Assembly (NCBI GenBank): GCA_003971905.1
Contig: RSEE01000087.1
Location: 186,001 to 250,000 of the forward strand
Source: Moniliella sp. 'wahieum'
Taxonomy: Eukaryota; Basidiomycota; Moniliellomycetes; Moniliellales; Moniliellaceae
Direction: 5' to 3'
DNA length: 64,000 bases
Shown here: piece after piece, positions 51,768 through 62,697 of the stretch
How the letters are laid out: every line of letters begins with the position of its first letter
How positions within the stretch are numbered: the first letter of the stretch is position 1
Notes under the pieces: model-generated
Database searches by the model: none
The model's input: the letters and a program-made list of their open reading frames with translations, nothing else
What the model was told of the DNA's origin: nothing
Position numbers and translations under genes: made by a program

Positions 51768-52102
51768 GCGCCCTCTCACCCCTCGCCCTCCGGCCTACCC
51801 CGCTCTCACCCGCCAGCTCGGCAGCCCCCCATGCCGTCGACTGTGCCGTTACGCGTACGTTTTGTCCCTCGCTTCGCTGTTTCTTTTCTGTCGTGGTTAC
51901 CTACCCTTTTTTCATTTTTCCTTCACGAGCGCCCTCTGCTTCCGCCTTTTACCATCCGTCGATTGTCGTTGCTATGCATACTATGACTGTCAAGGTGGAA
52001 TGTGAGAACGATGGTGGTGGTGGTAGGTACACCTTGATAGATGCCAGACCGTCGCGCCCCGACAGCCGGAGCGGCGCGTGGGGTTTCGACGTGTGTTGCA
52101 TG
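51768..52102. other. Convergent spacer BEM3 / ZW10
   Basis: 3' spacer between convergent genes, T-rich in part (51870-51990). An extended reading of the BEM3 tail to about 51.84 kb cannot be excluded. Confidence 0.4.
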
Positions 52103-55100
52103 TTAGCTGCGCTCGATGCGCGCAATCAGTTCGGCCCGCTTGGCCGAATCGGAAAAGAGGGCACGGAGGAGCTGGGTGAGCTCAGCGGGAGCAAAGTCGC
52201 GCAACGCGCCCGCTTCGCCCCAGAGAAAGGCAATGTCGGCCAACGAGCCGGTAAGCACATCGGCCAAGTAGGTCGCCTTGAACCAGGTAGGCACAAACGG
52301 CGCGGCCACCGCCGACGCCCGTTCGTCCGTCACCCCGGCCGCCTCGGCTTGGGCCGCGTCGGCGGCCGCGCCCGCGTCCACGCCCAGCGCCGCCGCGGCC
52401 ACCATGCGCCCCAGCGGGCGACGCAGCTGGGAACACAGCTGCTCCAAGCGCCGGCTCTCGTTGTCCGAGATGTCCTCCAGCGCTTCGATCTGGCCCACAA
52501 CGCTGGCCAGCGCCAGGTTGGCCAGGCGGCCCAGCGCACGCGCCGTCGCGCTCGCCGGCACAACGCCTTGCCATGCACGTGCCAGCGACGCCAGTGTGCC
52601 CACCACCTGCGCCACCGCCTCTCCGCCGCTCCGAACCGATGCACATTCGCCAGCCCCAAAAAGCCCCCGGCCGAGAGCAAGCTGCGGGACACGAGGCCTT
52701 CTTGCACACGCTGTCATTCCATTCGCACAGGGAGCGGAGGTGGTTAGTCAGTCCGCTCAGTCGCAACAAGAAGGACAGGATGAATCGATGAGTGGATGAG
52801 TCGGCGATCGCAACGTACCAATTGATGCTCAAAGCATTCGTGACCCATCATGCCCAGGCGCTCGGCTCGTTCGTGCAGCTCCTCCTGCACCGCCTCGCCC
52901 ATGCGCATCGCAGCCGCTTGCACCCACGCGGCCATCGTCGCACAGTCGTTGCGTACTGCCCGGCCAGCGCAGGCACACTGCTCGCCTCGGCCCCATACGT
53001 GGCGGGCAGCGTGGCAATGTACACGTCCACCGCGTCCACCACGCTGGCTTGCACTAGGGCGGGAAGCGAGCTGCCAGACGGCACGGATTCGTGCGCACCA
53101 GCCAGTTCCATAACCTCCTTCACTTCTTCCAGTCCTGCCAGCTCGGCGAGCTCGGCCAGGTCAAGCCCACCTCCCGCACCACTACCATCCGCCGCGGTAG
53201 CACGTTCGTACAGCGCAACCAGCTCCTCCAGCTGCGCCCGCACCGACTCGGTACGGACCGAGATCTGACACGCCTCTTCCGCCGGCAGCGCGGGTGCGAG
53301 CGGGGGTGGGCTGGGCGAGAGCGCACCTGCGACGATGATGGTATACCCGCCGTTGCCATTGACCCGTCACCCTCTTCGCCCCACCCCCACATATCCTCCT
53401 CTTCCGCGGCGGCGGCGGCAGGCGCGACAGTCAACAACGGCACCCCTCTTTCACGTGCCTCAGTGGCAGCCGCAGAAGGGGCATGTGCTTCCGCCTCGGC
53501 ACCCGCCGTTCGACTCAAGGCCGCATGCGCAAGGTCTGGGGGAGGGTGGGCGGGAGGCGCCACATGCGGTTGGTCCGCTGCGCGGGCGGGGCGAGACCCA
53601 AGGAGCGTGTCCACCTCGCCCTCCTCCTCCTTATCATTCTCGTCGTTGCTGTGCGCCCGCGAGGGAGAAGAGGAAAGGTCCCACGGATCCGAACTGCCTT
53701 CGCCGCTTGGGTACGGCGGCTCGGCCCCAGACCCTACCCCCGGCCCTTCTCCTCCACAACAGCAAGGGGAGCATCTGCCTCGGGCGGCGGCGGGTTGGCA
53801 GCGGGGGACGCGCTTGCATGGCGCACCTCCCGCCCTGACCCCGGCCGTACCGAAGGAGGCGATGCGTGCACAAAGGGGGAGGAATTGCGACTGAGCGCGT
53901 CCCACGAACTGCCAGACGTGCCCTCGCTCCCCTTGGGTGGGGGGGCAACAGCCGTGTGGTTGGCGTAGGAGTCTGAGCGACCCGGTGACTGGACACCCTC
54001 CTCCTGCTCTGCGTCCGGCGGTTGGGGGGCGCGGCAGGACTCGAAGCATCGTCATCCGCATCGAGATCCAGATCCCAGGCGTCTTCTGCCATCGCACTCG
54101 ATTCAGGTCCGGCACGCGGTTCTTCTTCGTGCAACGTAAAGGACGCTTGTTCGGCTTGATCAGGTGCAGGCGCCGTCGGTCCAGGACTTGCCTCGAACCG
54201 CTCGGGTACCACGTCAGCTGCTGCCCCCATCGGGGCAGCATCAACGCTGGGCTCTCTCTCAGCGTGTAGTGGCGGTGAGCGTGTTTGGTTGGGTAGAGGT
54301 GGGTGCTGGAGATGAATAGGCCCAGTTTCAGGAAGCATGCTCGAGGGCGGCGAGGGTGCACCAACGAGCGGGGGGGACAAGTCCCACGCATTCGTGTCCT
54401 GCGGTTGAGGAAGGGGTTGAAGGTCAGGACTCGAACGCAAGTCGAGAGGCTGCCCTTCCTGGGTTCCCGCCAGCGGATCCGTCTCAAAGTCCCACTCGTC
54501 CGCTTGTGCGTCCTCATCCATCAGGGAGCTTTGGGCCGGGTTTGCCACAGCTGAGGGAGAAGAAGCAGGTGCAGGAGCAGGAGGAAGAGCAGAAACGGGG
54601 GCAGGTGCAGGAGCAGGAGCAAGAACAGGGGAGAGATCCCAACCATCCGTGTCGAGCTCAGCATCCGCCTGACTGACGACCGTATCCGAAACGCCGTGAA
54701 GCGGGGGTGTCCTCGTAGATGCTGTCATGTCTGCAAATGACCGCGTTGGCAGATTGGTGTCAAATGTAGAGGCAGGCTCGGCTTCGTTAAGAAGAAGGCC
54801 AGCCTGAGTTTTGCCATCAGATCCTTGTGGAGGTAAGGGGGCCCAATCGTCTTCATGTTCGGTCGTGTTTTCTGAGAGCATTCCACAGTCAGTCTCAAGA
54901 TGCACCACAAGGAAGTCCAAACGCACCCGTCAAGCGAGGTAGATCCACCCCTTCATGACCTGTATGTCCGTGCGGCTCTGTCAAGCCAGCGAAAGAAGGC
55001 TCCTGGTCGGCATGAGCATGAGAGGGAATGGACGCAAGTATTTTGGGTGACAAGTCCCACCTCCTCGCCTGCCGTGTCCAGGGGCTGTCCTTCTTCGGTG

Positions 55101-58100
55101 CCAGCAGCCGGACCAGCCAGATGCTCATCCGTGGCGGTGAAGGAGTGGATCTCGGTCTCGGGCACAAATACGCGGCCATTGTCCAGATCCAATGGCTGGC
55201 CCTCGTCTGTTCCGGCTTGGACATCATCCCGAGGAAGGGCCTCAGGTGGAACGTCTTGAGAAAAGCCCCATCCATCATCACCTCCCACATCGAGGGGCTG
55301 CCCTTCCTCCGTCCCAGCGCCAAGATCAGTAACAAGACCCTCTCCAGCGACAAATGGCCTTGTCTCTGACACACCAGCATGGCCAACGTCCTTGCTGGGC
55401 AGCTGGATCGTCTCCGCTGCTCGACAGGGGTCGGGAGGGAGGGCCACTGGTGCTATCTCCGGCGAGAAGCCCCATCCGTCATCACCAGCCACGTTGGAGA
55501 CGGCCCTTCTTCGGTCGCAACGCCAGACGCGTGCAGCGCCTTGTCGTCGACCATGAAATCGGTTGGCAGAAATGCTTGGTCCATATTCATGTCCCGGAGC
55601 TGTTCCTCCTCTGCTCCTGCGTGCGCTTCGGTGGGGAGCAGGGGCGCGGGTGCCAGCGGCGGGGACAAATCCCACCCATCATCGCTGGCAATGTCGAGCG
55701 CCTTTTCTTCCGCTCCAGTACCAGAGACGGGCAGAGGCGCATCGGCAGAAGGGGGTGAGAGCGGTGCTGTGGCAGGTCCCGCAGGCTCCAACAGCGTCGC
55801 CTCCTTCGTCGCGCCGGCTTCGCTGTGGCTGGGCAGATGCGGGGTAGCGGCCAGCACCGGCGACAAGTCCCACGCATCCTCTGCGTCAGCACCGACTTGC
55901 CGACTCTCTCTCCCTATCGGCACTGGGAACAGCTTCATCAGGCGCCGGGGCGGACGAAGCGCCAGGGGCAAAGGCAAGGCCAACATCCACATCCAGCGGT
56001 TGGCCTTCCTGGGTACCTGCTTGGGTGTCTAGAGCAAGATCCGCGGGGGCCATCTCGGGCGAAAATCCCCATCCATCGTCCTCAGCAGTATCAAGAACAT
56101 GCGCCTGCTCCGTCCCAGCGTCGGGAGCTACCAATGGCACGCTCGCTGCGCCGAAGGACGGCAGATCATGCGGACCAACAGGCACATTCAGCGGTAGCCC
56201 CTCCTGCGTACCTGCCTCAGTGGGTAGAGGAAGAGGCGCAGGCGCCAGCTCGGGCGAGAAGTCCCATGCAGCATCGCCAGGGATGTCCTGAACTTTCTCT
56301 TCTCGGCCTCAACGCCGGAAGAGGCAATGTGCTTGTTCTGGGCCGTCACGAGCTCAGGCTCAGGTGCCTCGGTCGGGTCCGCCTGGCCAACGTTCACGTT
56401 CACGTCCAGTGCTTGCCTCTCCTGCGTACCTGCTTGCGAGGTCAGAGGAAGAGGCGCAGGTTCCAGCTCGGGCGAGAAACCCCATGCATCATCGCCCGTA
56501 TCGTTTAGAGGCTGCTCCTGTTCGGCTGGAGTGCCTACCTGGGCCGCCTCGGTACCCGCGTGAGTGGGGAAAGCCAGGGGCGGAGACGCCGCCTTGGGCG
56601 ACAAGTCCCACGCATCCTCCCCGTCCGTGTCGATATGCGCATCATCCCCCCTATGAGGTGGAGCAGACGACAGAGGCTCATCCTGCATGGCAAGGGTCTC
56701 CGGTTCCCGTTCCAAGACATGGCCTACCTCCCCATTCTCCACATCCTCCACATCCAGCGGCTGGCCTTCCTGCGTACCCGCTCGCGTGTCGAGATCAAGA
56801 GGCGCCGATGCCAGGTCGGGCGACGCCCCCCATGCACCATGCTGATCCACGTTCAGAGGTTGACCTTCCCGGTCCCGGCGCCCGGGGGGAGAAGGAGAAC
56901 GGGGGGGATGCGGTCGGGCCAGGCAAGGAATGCGCCTCATGGGGACCATGCTGATGCAGCGGTTGGCTTCCTCCGTACCTGCTCTGGCGAGAGGAAGAGG
57001 CGCAGGCGCCTCTTGGGGCGAAAAGTCCCATCCGTCGTCCTCGGTGATGTCTAGCGGCTGGCCTTCCTCCGTCCCTGGATGGGGGGGGCGGAAGGGACGT
57101 GCGCCGCCGAGGGTTGGGTCGTCAGAGGCGGCAAGACATGTGCCTCCTCAGCACCCGCGTCCACCACCTGCCCCGCATCCGTATCCACCAGCGTATCTGG
57201 CAATGGCGCCGGCGCCAGCTCAGGCGAAAGGTCCCATCCTTCGTCCTCAACAGGCAGAGACGAAGTGAGCGCCGGCGGCCCTTCGGTCGGCCCTGGCACA
57301 GTATCGCCGTCAGGGGTCTGGTGTGTCGAGAAGTCCCATCTCGTTGGGCCGGCGGGTTCCATCGGTTCGGATGTCCCATGCTCCGGCAGGCTCGCTTCCA
57401 AGGGTGGAGAAAGGGCGTTTTGCGTAGACGCAGGCACTGGCGGGAGAAGCGCACTGGCCAGATCAGGGGCCGGAAGGGGCTCCCCTTGCTCCAGGTTGAG
57501 ACCGGCCGGGTGGGTGGGAGGCAAGGCAGACGGCAGGGGCCCAGCGGCGTCGACGGCGGCTACCCCTCCGTCCGAAACTAACGAGCCCACCTCACCATCC
57601 TTCGCGCTCAGCGGTGCTTCCTCGTCGGGCACGGGCGCAACAGTGTCCGAGCCACGACGGACAGCCGCGTGACTGTCGATATCGACAGGATGGCCCTCCG
57701 CCGTGCCGTCATAGGAATCCAGAGCGTCATCCGACGGAAAGTCCCACCCTTGCGTGCCGTTGTCCCACCCGCCCAGCGCGGGGCCTGCCTGCGTGCCAGT
57801 GTCGTCGTGCCCAGCGGGGAGGGTGAGATGCGCGTTGTGCGCAGCGGCAGACGACCGGGGTGGCTCCGGCATCGCGTTCTCCAAGAACGGTACGAGCGTA
57901 GCTGGCACGACCGAATCGTCCGTCGCAGCAGGGCGCGTAGGGGAAGAGAGGTCCCATCCGCCCGCCTCGCTTCCTTGGTCCGCCAGGGCAGACGGGGCCA
58001 GTGGCGGTGTAGAAAGAGCAGTAGAGGGCTGGACTAGCCCCTCGGGCGGGCGGGGGGTTCGGGCGCCCTCTTGATCGTCCGTGGTCAGAGGGGGGAGAGG

Positions 58101-61100
58101 CCAAGCTAGCTTGGTCAGCCAGCTGCGGGTTCACAACGAGCGTGTTGGCCGCTGTGGTCGGGGGGGAGGCCAGACCCAGACCAGGCCTAGCAGGACTGGG
58201 CGACCCGGCGTGGTCAGGAGATGCCACGGCATCCATGCTGGCGACAGAGCCGGGGCGGGAAGTAGGCAAGGCAGTTTCCGAGGACAACGGCAGGACGGGC
58301 AAGGCTCGGGAAGACGGGGCAGCCGGGATGGAGGGCGGAGGCGAAGAAGCTCGAGGCGCCGACGATGAGGGCAGCTCGAGATCCCATGCGCCATGCTGCA
58401 ACGGCGATGGCGACGGAGGAGCCTCGTGCTTCCACCCACCCTGCTGAGATGGCGACGGCGTGACCAGCTCCAGCTCGTTAGCCGTCCGCGAGAAGCTTTC
58501 GTCAGCAGGAACAGGAGGCGTACGCAGACGCTCGACCGGCTCTGGCGCAAGCACTGCCGCAGATGACTCCCCTGAGACATCCCACTCGTCCGCCGTGGTC
58601 GCAAGAGCGCCCGACGGAGTCGTAGAGGTTGGTACGCCGGCCTTCTCAGTCGCAGGCGGGGCGCGAAACAGCTGGCTCCTTCGGGCGGAACGTGTCGTCG
58701 CCCAAGTCCCAGGCATCCTCGCCAGGCGAACTATGATCAGCAGGCGCTGCAGATGCAGCAGGCGTCGCAGAACCAAGCGCATCCAACTCCTCGGCTCGCT
58801 CGCCTTGCCCAGGGGCTGGGGAAGGGGCGGTAGGCGGAGGCGGGGGCGAGGCAATGGGGGGCAAAGACACGACGCGCGTGGGAGCAGCACTCGCGCTCTC
58901 TGAGGGAACCAACTCTGGAGCCAAGTCCCAAGCGTCCCCTAACCCACGTTCTTCCCGGCGGTACCGACGCTTGTGACGACGTGCGCGACAGACTCGAGGT
59001 GGGCCGCGGGGGAGGGACATGTGGGAGCTCAGCGTCGCACTGGGCCGCCGCGGGGCCGATGAGGGGGATGCGCGGTGCGCTTGCGCGGCAGCGCGAGGCT
59101 AAAGGGGGAATAGGCCGGCGCGGGGACAGGGCGAGCGCAGGTGCCTGCGGCGGGCTGGTGGCGGCCGAAGCGAGTCCTGCCCATGACGAGCCCGCCAGAG
59201 GGCCAGGGAGCGGCGGGGACGCCAAGGAAGGACTGGGCGCCGAGGCCAAGGCAGGGCTGTGCCCCAACGTAGACAGCGTGCTGGGCAACGGAGGAGGACT
59301 GGCCACCACCGGGCGCGGCGACGAGGGCAACGCGCTGGAGCCCAGATCGGACCCCAGCACGGGCACGGGCACCGGGCTGGGCGACGGGCGCAACGGAGGA
59401 CTCCCGCCGCGCTGCCCGCAACGCTGCCCGCGACACTGCCCGACACGCTGCCGGCCATGCTGCCGCCCAAGCTGGTGCCAGCGAGGCCCAGGCCGGACCC
59501 AAGCGCGCGCGCGCCTGTGCCTGCGCCTGCACTCGCGCCGCGCCGAGGAGGAGCGGACTTGGCCCAGCCGCGAGGGCAGGGCGCGGCTGGACAGGGCGCT
59601 GGACGAGCGAACGGACGAGGCTTGGCCGGGACCGGAAGCGGAGGTTCTTCCAGCCCCCACGCATCTTCGTCCGAAGGGAACGGGCCCGAACCCAACTGGG
59701 CCTGCGCTGGGATTCGGCGCGCCGCCAGTTTTTCCGTCCTCCCCGCGCCATCCCCGTTCCGATGGAGTTGGATGGGGCCAGGCTCGCTGCCGGCGTCGGC
59801 GAGGCGCGGGAGACCATGCGTCCGCTACGGGCAATGCCACCTGCTGCCGAAAGGGGCTGGGATCCTCCACGCCCGCAGGGTGGTGGGCTGAGCCAAGGGC
59901 GTTGCAAAATCTTGGTTGCTGCTCGTGTCAAACTCTGAGCCGGGGAGCGCCAGAGGCGGAGCACCGATCGATGCGTACACAGCCGTCGAAGTAGACAGCA
60001 TTGAGGGACTGTCGCCCACCGATCCGGTGGCGCCCCAGGTACCTGGCCACTAGCGGCATCGCGCACACGGGCCACCTGGGCCGCCAGCACGGCTTTGCGC
60101 ATGGCCGTGGGTGTGTCGCGGGCGGCGATAAGGAGGCGTGCAAGCGTCGTGCGTGCCTCGGTCGCTTGCGCTTGGCCCTTGGCCATCAAGGGTTCCGACA
60201 TTGACAAACGCTTCCATGCCTTGAGGAGTTGAAGTGCCTCCTCCCGGGCCACCGACGCTTCCTCGGCCGGGAGCGAGTGCAGGTCGATCGCGGCCAATTG
60301 AGCGCGGTGCCAGGCCAAGAGGACGTCGACAGTGCGCTTGCGCAACAACCGCACCTCCTCATCCTGGGGCGCAGGAAGGTCCTCCTGACTATGAGGTGAG
60401 CTCAGTGTTGCCGTTGCTACGGCCGCGATCAGCTCAGTCACTCGGACCAGGGTTTCGGATGCGGGGCCCGGAGGCCAAGTCAAAGTCACGGCATAGCGAG
60501 ATACGGCTTGGAGGTCCAAGCGAGGGTCCAGTGGGGGAGGCTCTAGGGCAACCCTTGTGGCAGGCGCAACCTGTTCGGCGGCATGCCAAGAGGTGTGAAG
60601 AGAACGTTCTCAAGGGTGGTCAGGAGGGCAGAGAACACAGTAGGGTGAAACGAAAGGAGCAACGGGACCAAGTCGGAGGTTAGATCAAGCGAATGCGCCG
60701 GGCCATCACGCAGAGCGGCAACCGAGATGGACGAAGCCAAGGCCAAATGGACCGTAGTCGGCTTGGCTGGCTCGTTCGGCTCGGTTGACTCGGTGGTCAC
60801 TTGGACCGCGCCATGCCAGGCAGCAAGCGTGAGCGCGCTTGCTTGCTCCATCACCTTGTCGGCGCGGGCGGCGATGGCATGGACAAAGCCAATGCCAGGA
60901 GAAGACAGGGCCCAGGCTTGCGGGCCTTGCGCCAGCTCCTGGACGGCCGCTTGGGCCTTGGGGCCGCTGACGCAGAGGACGTTGGAGAGGTCGCCACTGG
61001 CCCAGGCGAGCTCGGCTTGCTCCACCGCCTGAAGCGGCGCAACCAGCGCTTGACACAGCTCTGTCAGTGCCCGGAGGCGGGTGTGTTGGCCGACCAGACC

Positions 61101-61570
61101 GGTGTGACCGCGGCGGGGACAGAGATGGGCTGTGCAGAGCCAGCAAGTGCCAACACGACCAACCAAACAAACAAACAAACACGAGTCAGTAAGGGAAGGG
61201 CAGGGGCCAGTCTGGCCCGACCTAGACGTACGTCGTGAGCAGCATCGATCGGCGCAAGCGAAGGAGCGGCGCGAAGACGGGCAAGGCGGGCGCGCAGCTC
61301 GTCGACCCGCGCAGGCAGGGAATCGGCGGTTTCAGCATGGTGGGTAAGCTGCTGGGCATGCTGGCGGAGATGGGCAAGGAGGCGGGTCTGGTGGGCATGG
61401 ATCTGCGCATCGAGCAGGGTGGCCTTTGCGCTGGGCGGCAGCACGGGCAGGGCGGCGGCGGAGCCCGGCGTGGCGGAGGAAGCGGGCGCGGGCGGGGCAA
61501 GCGACACGCCGGCGTTGATGGCGACCAGCACCGAGCGGACATCCGTCGGCGGGCCAGCAGGGGCCGACAT
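52103..61570 (-). CDS. DSL1: Giant ZW10/Dsl1-family ER tether with Trp-motif repeat array
   Basis: Dsl1/ZW10 tethers Golgi-derived COPI vesicles at the ER. Start 61570 (MSAPAGPPTDVRSVL); N-terminal helices (LLDAQIHAHQTRLLAHLRQH; LVPLLLSFHPTVFSALLTTL; EARTTLARLLIAARDTP). Introns: 61130-61231, 54872-54926, 53265-53326 and 52711-52818, all with GTACGT or GTGCGT donors. The C-terminal domain has VRAQLEELVALYERA, QYA(N)DCATMAAWVQAA, ECFEHQL, SRSLLSAGGFLGLANVHRF, IEALEDISDNESRRLEQLCS, VPTWFKATYLADVLTGSLAD and RALFSDSAKRAELIARI (stop 52103), matching the ZW10 C-terminus. Between them, about 53.35-60.0 kb encodes an acidic Pro-rich region with about 29 Trp motifs. About 3,000 aa versus 750-780 for yeast and human. 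More than 15 missing bases were bridged, all in the same direction. That it is one gene is inferred from continuous coding and donor/acceptor fits. Confidence 0.8.
53350..59700 (-). repeat. Protein-level repeat array: Trp motifs with GTxEGQPLDV linkers
   Basis: About 29 short acidic Trp motifs are spread over 6.3 kb inside the ZW10/Dsl1 gene. Examples are DEDAWGLEEPPLP (59.67 kb), EDEGWDLSPELAPAPLP (57.23), EDDGWDFSPQEAPAPLP (57.03), DDAWGFSPELEPAPLP (56.49), DDGWGFSPEM (56.07), DDGWGFSQDV (55.27), DEWDFETDPLAGTQEGQ (54.50), EDAWDLDLDADDD (54.08) and DMWGWGEEGDG (53.38). About 11 carry a following or preceding linker of the form AGTQEGQPLDV. Spacing varies from about 80 to 250 bp, so this is a degenerate, long-standing expansion rather than a fresh DNA tandem. 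Confidence 0.85.
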
Positions 61571-62070
61571 GGCGTGGGCGGTGCGATGCGATGCGGGCGA
61601 GGGGGCGAGGGGGCGAGGGGGGCGATGGAGATGGTGGGCGCGATGGAGGCGATGATGGGCGCGATGGAGGCGATGGAGGCGATGGAGACGAGGGGGCAGG
61701 CGAGGCAGGTGGCTGCCATGCCACGTCAATATCAATCGCCTTCAAGCTTCAATAGCCCCGCCCTGCCCACCGCCTGTTCCGCCCGCAGCGGAACGGAGTG
61801 GAGTCACCGGCCGCCAGCTGCCTGTCTGCGCCCCCGGGGGCCTACGATGGGCTACGACGTGCTCTGCATGGCCGGCGCCATGGCGGGCATGCAGTCTGCG
61901 GCGGGATGGGATGGGACGAGATGAGATCAACTGGGACGAGGCGCAGCGGGAGCAGAGCAGAGCAGGAGCTATGGCGGCGGCTAGCGCAAATGTGCCCCGG
62001 CCGAGCCGGCCCCGTCGGGCCCAGCACACACACAGCCGCGCGGCGCGTCCATCGCCACGGCGGGCGAGCG
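61571..62070. other. Promoter spacer of the ZW10/DSL1 gene
   Basis: Holds a GGCGATGGAGGCGATG-type repeat at about 61618-61690 and a TTCAAGCTTCAA word near 61742. No gene seen. Confidence 0.5.
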
Positions 62071-62492
62071 CTACGAGTCGACGTCGACGCCTCGTTGGCG
62101 GAGGTAGTCCTTGGCCTCTTTGATTTCCTGCACAACGGGGCTGCCCGTGTTAGCCCAGCACCGCACACCGCCAGCACCGCCGCTGCCGCCGCCAACGACG
62201 CGACTGGGGACGGGGGAGGGAGCCAGCGGACAAAGGAGAGCAAGAGCAAGCAACGTACGACCAGCAGTTCTTCGTATGCCTTGGGCGTGTCGTTGAAGTA
62301 GTACAGGCCCTTGCCCAGCTCGTACATCAGGTGGCAGCCCACCGCAATCAGCGCCCACCACGGCAGCGCGGCCAGCACAGCGTCCGCCGTGGCCTGCGGC
62401 ACGAGCGGGACGGGGAGGAGGTGGAGCCAGAAGACGAGGTATGCGCTGGCGACGAGCGCCAGCTTGGTGGCAAAGCGGGTGGCGCGGGTCAT
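62071..62492 (-). CDS. DPM3: Dolichol-phosphate mannosyltransferase subunit 3
   Basis: Dpm3 is a small two-helix ER membrane protein that anchors and stabilises the Dpm1 catalytic subunit. Exon 1 is 62492-62259 (MTRATRFATKLALVASAYLV, second helix around LPWWALIAVGCHLMYELGKG, then LYYFNDTPKAYEELLV). The intron is 62128-62258 (GTACGT donor, GCTAAC branch, TGCAG acceptor), and exon 2 is EIKEAKDYLRQRGVDVDS, stop 62071. 96 aa with no frame error. The pattern of two hydrophobic helices, a short FND/F.DC-like block and a C-terminal EI.EAK..L..RG helix matches Dpm3 in length and order. Confidence 0.9.
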
Positions 62493-62697
62493 GGCGGGCA
62501 GGAAAGGGCAGGGCAGCGAGAGGCAGCGCCGATGGTTAGATGGTCGTCGTCTCCGCCCAGACAGACCCCCGTCGCCCACCACCACCCCAGCGTCTGACGT
62601 AAGCGCTGCCACGTCTGTCACCCCATGCGCACCACCCCCACGCCATGCGCACCACCGTCCCCACCACCACCAGCTGAATGCATTCGTTTCCCGCCCC

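What the first reader, a model, noticed from the sequence alone, without database searches (positions are those of the whole stretch)
53350..59700. A ZW10/Dsl1 tether with about 29 tryptophan motifs: a hypertrophied COPI-capture loop?
Sequence: between ZW10-like N- and C-terminal domains lies a roughly 2,200-residue acidic, Pro-rich region with about 29 Trp motifs (DDGWGFSPE, EDAWDLSPEL, DEWDFETD, DMWGWGEEGD). About ten fit W-x-[WF]; most others are W-D-L. Known: yeast Dsl1 has an acidic loop with a few Trp motifs that bind alpha- and delta-COP, and the delta-COP mu-homology domain binds Trp motifs with a second aromatic residue nearby. Inference: this protein is a multivalent 'fishing line' for COPI coats, giving high-avidity vesicle capture or coat clustering. 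I know of no described ZW10/Dsl1 with anything like this number.
Basis: partly seen in the sequence, partly recalled or inferred. Interest (0 to 1): 0.9.

Follow-up and report, generated by a model that had tools for sequence, protein, structure and literature searches.

The report
Vesicle tether with giant tryptophan-motif loop
A fungal gene for a protein that helps catch transport vesicles carries an enormous, probably floppy loop with about thirty tryptophan motifs of the kind known to grip a vesicle coat, so it looks like an oversized fishing line for vesicles, although binding has not been tested.

Summary
Window 61570-52103 (minus strand) encodes one ZW10/Dsl1-family protein of about 3,080 residues. 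Its C-terminus is ZW10 (ZW10_C2 E 1e-21; human ZW10 E 4e-19). The first ~495 residues match no Pfam family above cut-off and no PDB chain. Between lies a ~2,215-residue acidic, Pro-rich loop with 33 Trp: 25 fit W-[DG]-[LFWV] (shuffle mean 0.9, maximum 5) and 10 fit W-x-[WF] (mean 1.0, maximum 5). Clathrin/AP2-type motifs are not enriched. Frame jumps are mostly assembly errors: a collinear second haplotype is in frame at 19 of 24 non-intron breaks by script, 18 cleanly. It has Trp at 32 of 33 sites. The genome also encodes delta-COP, alpha-COP, RINT1/Tip20 and Sec39 domains. An overgrown Dsl1 'lasso' for COPI capture is the best explanation, but nothing here shows binding. No relative could be retrieved, motif cores are no better conserved between haplotypes than the rest of the loop, and 13 motifs are W-D-L, without the adjacent second aromatic. 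It is an extreme variant of a known device.

The parts
52103..61570 (-). ZW10/Dsl1-family gene, about 3,080 residues read in 27 pieces
59989..61570 (-). N-terminal part, ~495 residues, no recognised domain; assigned by position only
   Evidence: (no match above cut-off)
61131..61230 (-). probable intron 1; borders uncertain, and the second haplotype is open in frame through it
   Evidence: sequence, frame change
53326..59989 (-). acidic Pro/Ala/Ser-rich loop, residues 496-2710, with 33 Trp
53381..59659 (-). span of the 25 W-[DG]-[LFWV] motifs, from EDAWGLEE to EDMWGWGE
55041..57266 (-). central block with motifs about every 67 residues: 12 Trp, 11 in consensus, with AGT[EQ]EGQPLD elements
52711..52818 (-). 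intron 2 (GTACGT...GACAG, 108 bases); human ZW10 aligns across it
52103..53318 (-). C-terminal part, ~370 residues
52115..52618 (-). ZW10_C2 domain (PF22766), two matched stretches

Best explanation
A fungal Dsl1/ZW10 subunit whose coat-binding 'lasso' has grown to about 2,200 residues with 25-33 Trp motifs. At the tip of an ER-anchored Dsl1 complex the loop would act as a multivalent fishing line: W-x-[WF] motifs bind the mu-homology domain of delta-COP; W-D-L motifs bind it more weakly or bind the alpha-COP C-terminal region. Many weak contacts give long reach and avidity for COPI-coated vesicles and may help pull coat units apart at uncoating. Shown: the ZW10 C-terminus, the loop, the number and enrichment of motifs, and the presence of partner genes. 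Inferred: disorder (from composition only), binding, avidity, uncoating.
For: ZW10_C2 E 9.9e-22; human ZW10 E 4.2e-19 over 211 residues. 25 W-[DG]-[LFWV] against shuffle mean 0.86, maximum 5, and 10 W-x-[WF] against 0.96, maximum 5. Outside the regular block 14 of 21 Trp still fit (shuffle mean 0.47, maximum 4 of 5,000). Trp at 32 of 33 sites in the second haplotype (31 by script, one more by eye). DPW, DPF, NPF, WxxF, clathrin box, W-box and gamma-ear patterns not enriched. delta-COP MHD E 2.9e-16; alpha-COP C-terminus; RINT1/Tip20; Sec39. Reviews: yeast Dsl1p binds delta- and alpha-COP by Trp motifs in an unstructured central lasso (PMC4868844, passages; PMC7145657, passages; PMC4206994, passages).
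Against: No binding data, transcript or ortholog. Motif cores are not better conserved between haplotypes than the rest of the loop: 17 of 249 against 129 of 1,856 codons non-synonymous; 907 of 2,000 rotated controls as low or lower. W-x(1-6)-[WF] only 12 against mean 5.4 (8 of 2,000). N-terminal part unrecognised. Pocket residues of delta-COP not checked.
Confidence: 0.65

Rival explanations
1. Neutral repeat growth: an ordinary short lasso with a few motifs was enlarged by copying of a ~67-residue unit; most copies add nothing and the protein works with a handful.
For: Regular central block: 12 of 13 spacings between residues 1411 and 2273 are 65-74. No extra conservation of cores between haplotypes; the loop carries relatively more non-synonymous change (146 against 99 synonymous codons) than the N-part (14 against 16) and C-part (8 against 12).
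Against: 14 of 21 Trp outside the block fit the consensus in unrelated contexts. Units are too diverged for TRF to report a ~200-base period, yet keep W-[DG]-[LF]. Codons at W+1 and W+2 differ synonymously among copies. No W-motif copy-number difference between haplotypes in the alignment.
Confidence: 0.2
2. The motifs serve another partner, such as clathrin/AP adaptors or an unknown domain, rather than COPI.
For: Only 10 of 33 Trp have the adjacent second aromatic. One SDPWDLS site resembles a DPW motif.
Against: DPW 1, DPF, NPF, WxxF, W-box, clathrin box and gamma-ear 0, none above shuffles (patterns recalled). A ZW10-family protein points to COPI.
Confidence: 0.1
3. Gene-model artefact: the array belongs to another gene or the frame is not truly open.
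For: The window's frame is broken at 24 places besides two presumed introns; at 5 of these the second haplotype is not in frame either, and at one more (near 55072) it is in frame only through its own compensating shifts.
Against: Breaks beside the N-part/loop border (near 60590, 60012, 59884) and the loop/C-part border (near 53323, 52958) are in frame in the second haplotype; both copies are collinear over 16 kb.
Confidence: 0.05

Closest known systems
Saccharomyces cerevisiae Dsl1p lasso (Dsl1 complex)
   Same: Acidic, apparently unstructured insert before the C-terminal part, with Trp motifs amid acidic residues; family membership through ZW10 (passages of PMC4868844, PMC4206994, PMC7145657)
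   Different: Here ~2,215 residues and 25-33 motifs; yeast has a far shorter loop with a few (recalled). The C-terminus here matched human ZW10 by sequence; no Dsl1 chain was matched
Human ZW10 (NRZ complex)
   Same: C-terminal ~210 residues align, E 4.2e-19
   Different: ZW10 lacks the acidic COPI-binding region (PMC4206994, passage)
ELM LIG_deltaCOP1_diTrp_1 ligands (Dsl1, ArfGAPs)
   Same: Trp with second aromatic and acidic surroundings (PMC7145657, passage): 10 W-x-[WF] sites here
   Different: 23 of 33 Trp lack W/F at +2, 13 of them being W-D-L; number of sites is extreme
Clathrin adaptors with long motif-bearing loops (epsin type, recalled)
   Same: Working principle: a long disordered chain with repeated weak coat motifs
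   Different: Different motifs (clathrin/AP2 ones not enriched) and different folded domain

Membership tests
ZW10/Dsl1 tether family | ZW10 C-terminal helical domain | tested here: met
   PF22766 E 9.9e-22, 78.1 bits, cut-off 27; human ZW10 E 4.2e-19
ZW10/Dsl1 tether family | ZW10/Dsl1 N-terminal and middle domains | tested here: inconclusive
ZW10/Dsl1 tether family | Partner subunits RINT1/Tip20 and Sec39 encoded | tested here: met
   PF04437 72.0 bits, cut-off 30; PF08314 30.8 bits, cut-off 22, over 114 of 753 positions
Dsl1 COPI-binding lasso | Acidic low-complexity insert with Trp motifs in the chain | tested here: met
   324 D+E, 92 K+R, 33 Trp, 25 in consensus; disorder itself not predicted
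[quoted passage not shown]
   Only presence of the partner domains shown
delta-COP di-Trp motif class | Trp with second aromatic within six residues (spacing as given in the finding) | tested here: inconclusive
   12 of 33 Trp; shuffle mean 5.4, reached by 8 of 2,000; W-x-[WF] alone 10 against 0.96
Clathrin/AP2 adaptor loops (epsin type) | Repeated DPW/DPF/NPF/clathrin-box/W-box motifs (patterns recalled) | tested here: not met
   1 DPW, 0 of the others, none above shuffles

The most novel reading that the evidence does not exclude
The loop is a phospho-switchable polyvalent COPI scaffold. 13 of 33 Trp have Ser-Pro directly behind the core (W-x-x-S-P; shuffle mean 0.8, maximum 4 of 2,000; 11 of the 13 lie in the repeated block, so copying explains much of this). 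A proline-directed kinase could set coat binding of the whole array at once, and 25-33 sites could gather several coated vesicles or freed coatomer into a depot or condensate at ER arrival sites instead of tethering one vesicle.
Probability: 0.15. Interest if true: 0.85.

Novelty: new variant of a known kind. Interest (0 to 1): 0.62.

Why it matters
Reviews note that yeast Dsl1p uses a Trp lasso while homologs of aquatic fungi, plants and animals lack it (PMC4868844, passage), and that how ZW10 tethers without it is unsettled (PMC4206994, passage). A natural array several times larger (yeast number recalled) makes it testable whether motif number sets tethering reach, avidity or uncoating, and offers many natural variants of one short COPI ligand in a single protein. 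A gradient of motif counts among relatives would make it a case of tuned multivalency in a tether.

Tried and rejected
Frame changes as introns: rejected for most, since the second haplotype is in frame at 19 of 24 breaks by script, 18 cleanly.

Clathrin/AP2 ligand as the main reading: rejected on motif counts.

Homolog searches: none of three found a homolog; the 8,000 candidates sharing most words were scored, none at E <= 0.001; array piece, 2,187 candidates, none at E <= 1. Lengths were restricted and I do not know how many fungal proteins the database holds, so this does not show that relatives lack the array.

Search of the own genome with an array piece: 10 matches of 14 candidates scored, all at this locus or its second haplotype.

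Trp motifs of ArfGAP genes as an internal yardstick: read the wrong strand for most loci; one search read the gene strand in 11 loci and showed an acidic W-D motif in two Glo3-like ones (name recalled). Not pursued.

Flagellar marker PF04712: no match, but the tool says this does not show absence.

Literature, open-access library only, titles and abstract starts of listed papers: 11 of 11 listed; 20 of 34; 2 of 2; 20 of 424; 4 of 4; 10 of 43; 2 of 2. None of those listed is about an expanded motif array in Dsl1/ZW10. Suckling 2015, Travis 2019 and Ren 2009 are not held; what I use of them is recalled or through reviews.
Full report
What is there. The gene lies on the minus strand, from an ATG at 61570 to a stop at 52103. 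Read naively it changes frame many times. The genome holds a second copy on contig C86, collinear over 16 kb at 94.7% identity, which I take as a second haplotype. The two copies differ by many one- and two-base indels of read-error type. The window's reading needs 26 joins, two of them presumed introns. By script the second copy is in frame at 19 of the other 24. At one of the 19 (near 55072) it gets there only through shifts of its own, so 18 are clean; at 5 it is not in frame. It is also open through presumed intron 1, so that intron is only probable. I therefore read the protein in 27 pieces with X at the joins: 3,080 residues.

Domains. The last ~370 residues are ZW10: PF22766 E 9.9e-22; human ZW10, 7qpg_W, E 4.2e-19 over 211 residues, aligned across intron 2. 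PF20666 is below its cut-off (18.5 bits against 25.8). The first ~495 residues have only sub-threshold Pfam matches (best COG5_N, E 0.0046, 17.6 bits against a cut-off of 31.2) and no PDB match up to E 10, so their ZW10 label rests on position. PF22766 gave three matches at two loci in the genome, the window and its second copy.

The loop. Residues 496-2710 are Pro/Ala/Ser-rich and acidic (324 D+E, 92 K+R of 2,196). There are 33 Trp; 25 fit W-[DG]-[LFWV] (shuffle mean 0.86, maximum 5 of 2,000) and 10 fit W-x-[WF] (mean 0.96, maximum 5). The looser W-x(1-6)-[WF] class is 12 against a mean of 5.4, reached by 8 of 2,000 shuffles, so the signal lies in the tight motif. All six-frame ORFs of 100 aa or more in window 1-52000 hold 0.26 consensus motifs per 1,000 aa against 11.4 in the loop. 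Trp density itself is ordinary (15 per 1,000, against 14 in the N-part): the context is what is unusual. In the centre (57266-55041) motifs recur about every 67 residues in units like AGT[EQ]EGQPLD[VI] ... DDGW[DG][FL]SPELAPAPLPL; 12 of 13 spacings from residue 1411 to 2273 are 65-74. TRF reported no array of that period (8 rows, periods 6-30). Outside the block 14 of 21 Trp fit the consensus (shuffle mean 0.47, maximum 4 of 5,000), so copying of one unit does not explain all motifs.

Haplotype test. The second copy has TGG at 31 of 33 aligned sites by script; one miss is an alignment shift with TGG present, the other a real TTT at residue 2205, an off-consensus Trp, so 32 of 33. Motif cores are not better conserved than the rest: 17 of 249 core codons non-synonymous against 129 of 1,856, with 907 of 2,000 rotated controls as low or lower. 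Codons touched by indels are 6 of 255 in cores and 85 of 1,941 outside. Read errors and few differences weaken the test. The loop has 146 non-synonymous against 99 synonymous codons, the N-part 14 against 16 and the C-part 8 against 12: looser than the flanks.

Setting. The genome, 69.5 Mb in 223 contigs, is fungal by 45 Fungal_trans matches; weak STE3-type matches on two contigs suggest Dikarya. No species name was available. It encodes a delta-COP mu-homology domain (4o8q E 2.9e-16, 5fk0 E 2.9e-14, both named coatomer subunit delta), found first as a match below the PF00928 cut-off. It also has alpha-COP C-terminus matches on two contigs, RINT1/Tip20 and Sec39. I did not check pocket residues of delta-COP.

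How it most likely works. From the passages read: yeast Dsl1p has an unstructured lasso at the tip of a ~20-nm ER tether that binds delta- and alpha-COP by Trp motifs; these coat regions link triads, so binding may aid uncoating; homologs in aquatic fungi, plants and metazoans lack the lasso (PMC4868844; PMC4206994; motif class in PMC7145657). This protein looks like the same device greatly enlarged (yeast motif number recalled). A rough polymer estimate (recalled scaling, computed) puts the loop's end-to-end distance near 46 nm. Binding, disorder and effect are inferences. Ser-Pro behind 13 of 33 motifs (11 of them in the repeated block) allows kinase control, also an inference.

Verdict. Observation confirmed, interpretation partly supported; an extreme variant of a known device. 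The ortholog series would change the score most: if many related fungi carry such arrays, the interest lies in how the array evolved and is tuned; if this species is alone, drift becomes a stronger rival.

Noticed in passing
window 52000-61800 against L003-L005 (C86:50001-76000): The assembly carries two copies of the region, 94.7% identical over 16 kb, both with many one- and two-base indels of read-error type; gene models from this genome will look broken.
   Followed up: partly
window about 62150-62535, minus strand: A short reading (MTRATRFATKLALVASAYLVFWLHLLPVPLV...) looks like DPM3, the small subunit of dolichol-phosphate mannose synthase (name recalled).
   Followed up: no
L038 (C9:1115 kb) and L039 (C6:496 kb), minus strand: Two Glo3/ArfGAP2-3-like loci (name recalled) have an acidic Trp motif (FFDDWDNDTP and LFDDWDDDKP) downstream of the ArfGAP zinc finger.
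   Followed up: partly
window 55041-57266: A second conserved element, AGT[EQ]EGQPLD[VIL], recurs between the Trp cores (7 copies by strict pattern in the whole protein); no known motif came to mind.
   Followed up: no
L051 (C104) and L052 (C111): Weak STE3-type pheromone receptor matches on two contigs (3 matches, 27-33 bits, cut-off 29.2), which would fit two mating types in one dikaryon or diploid.
   Followed up: no
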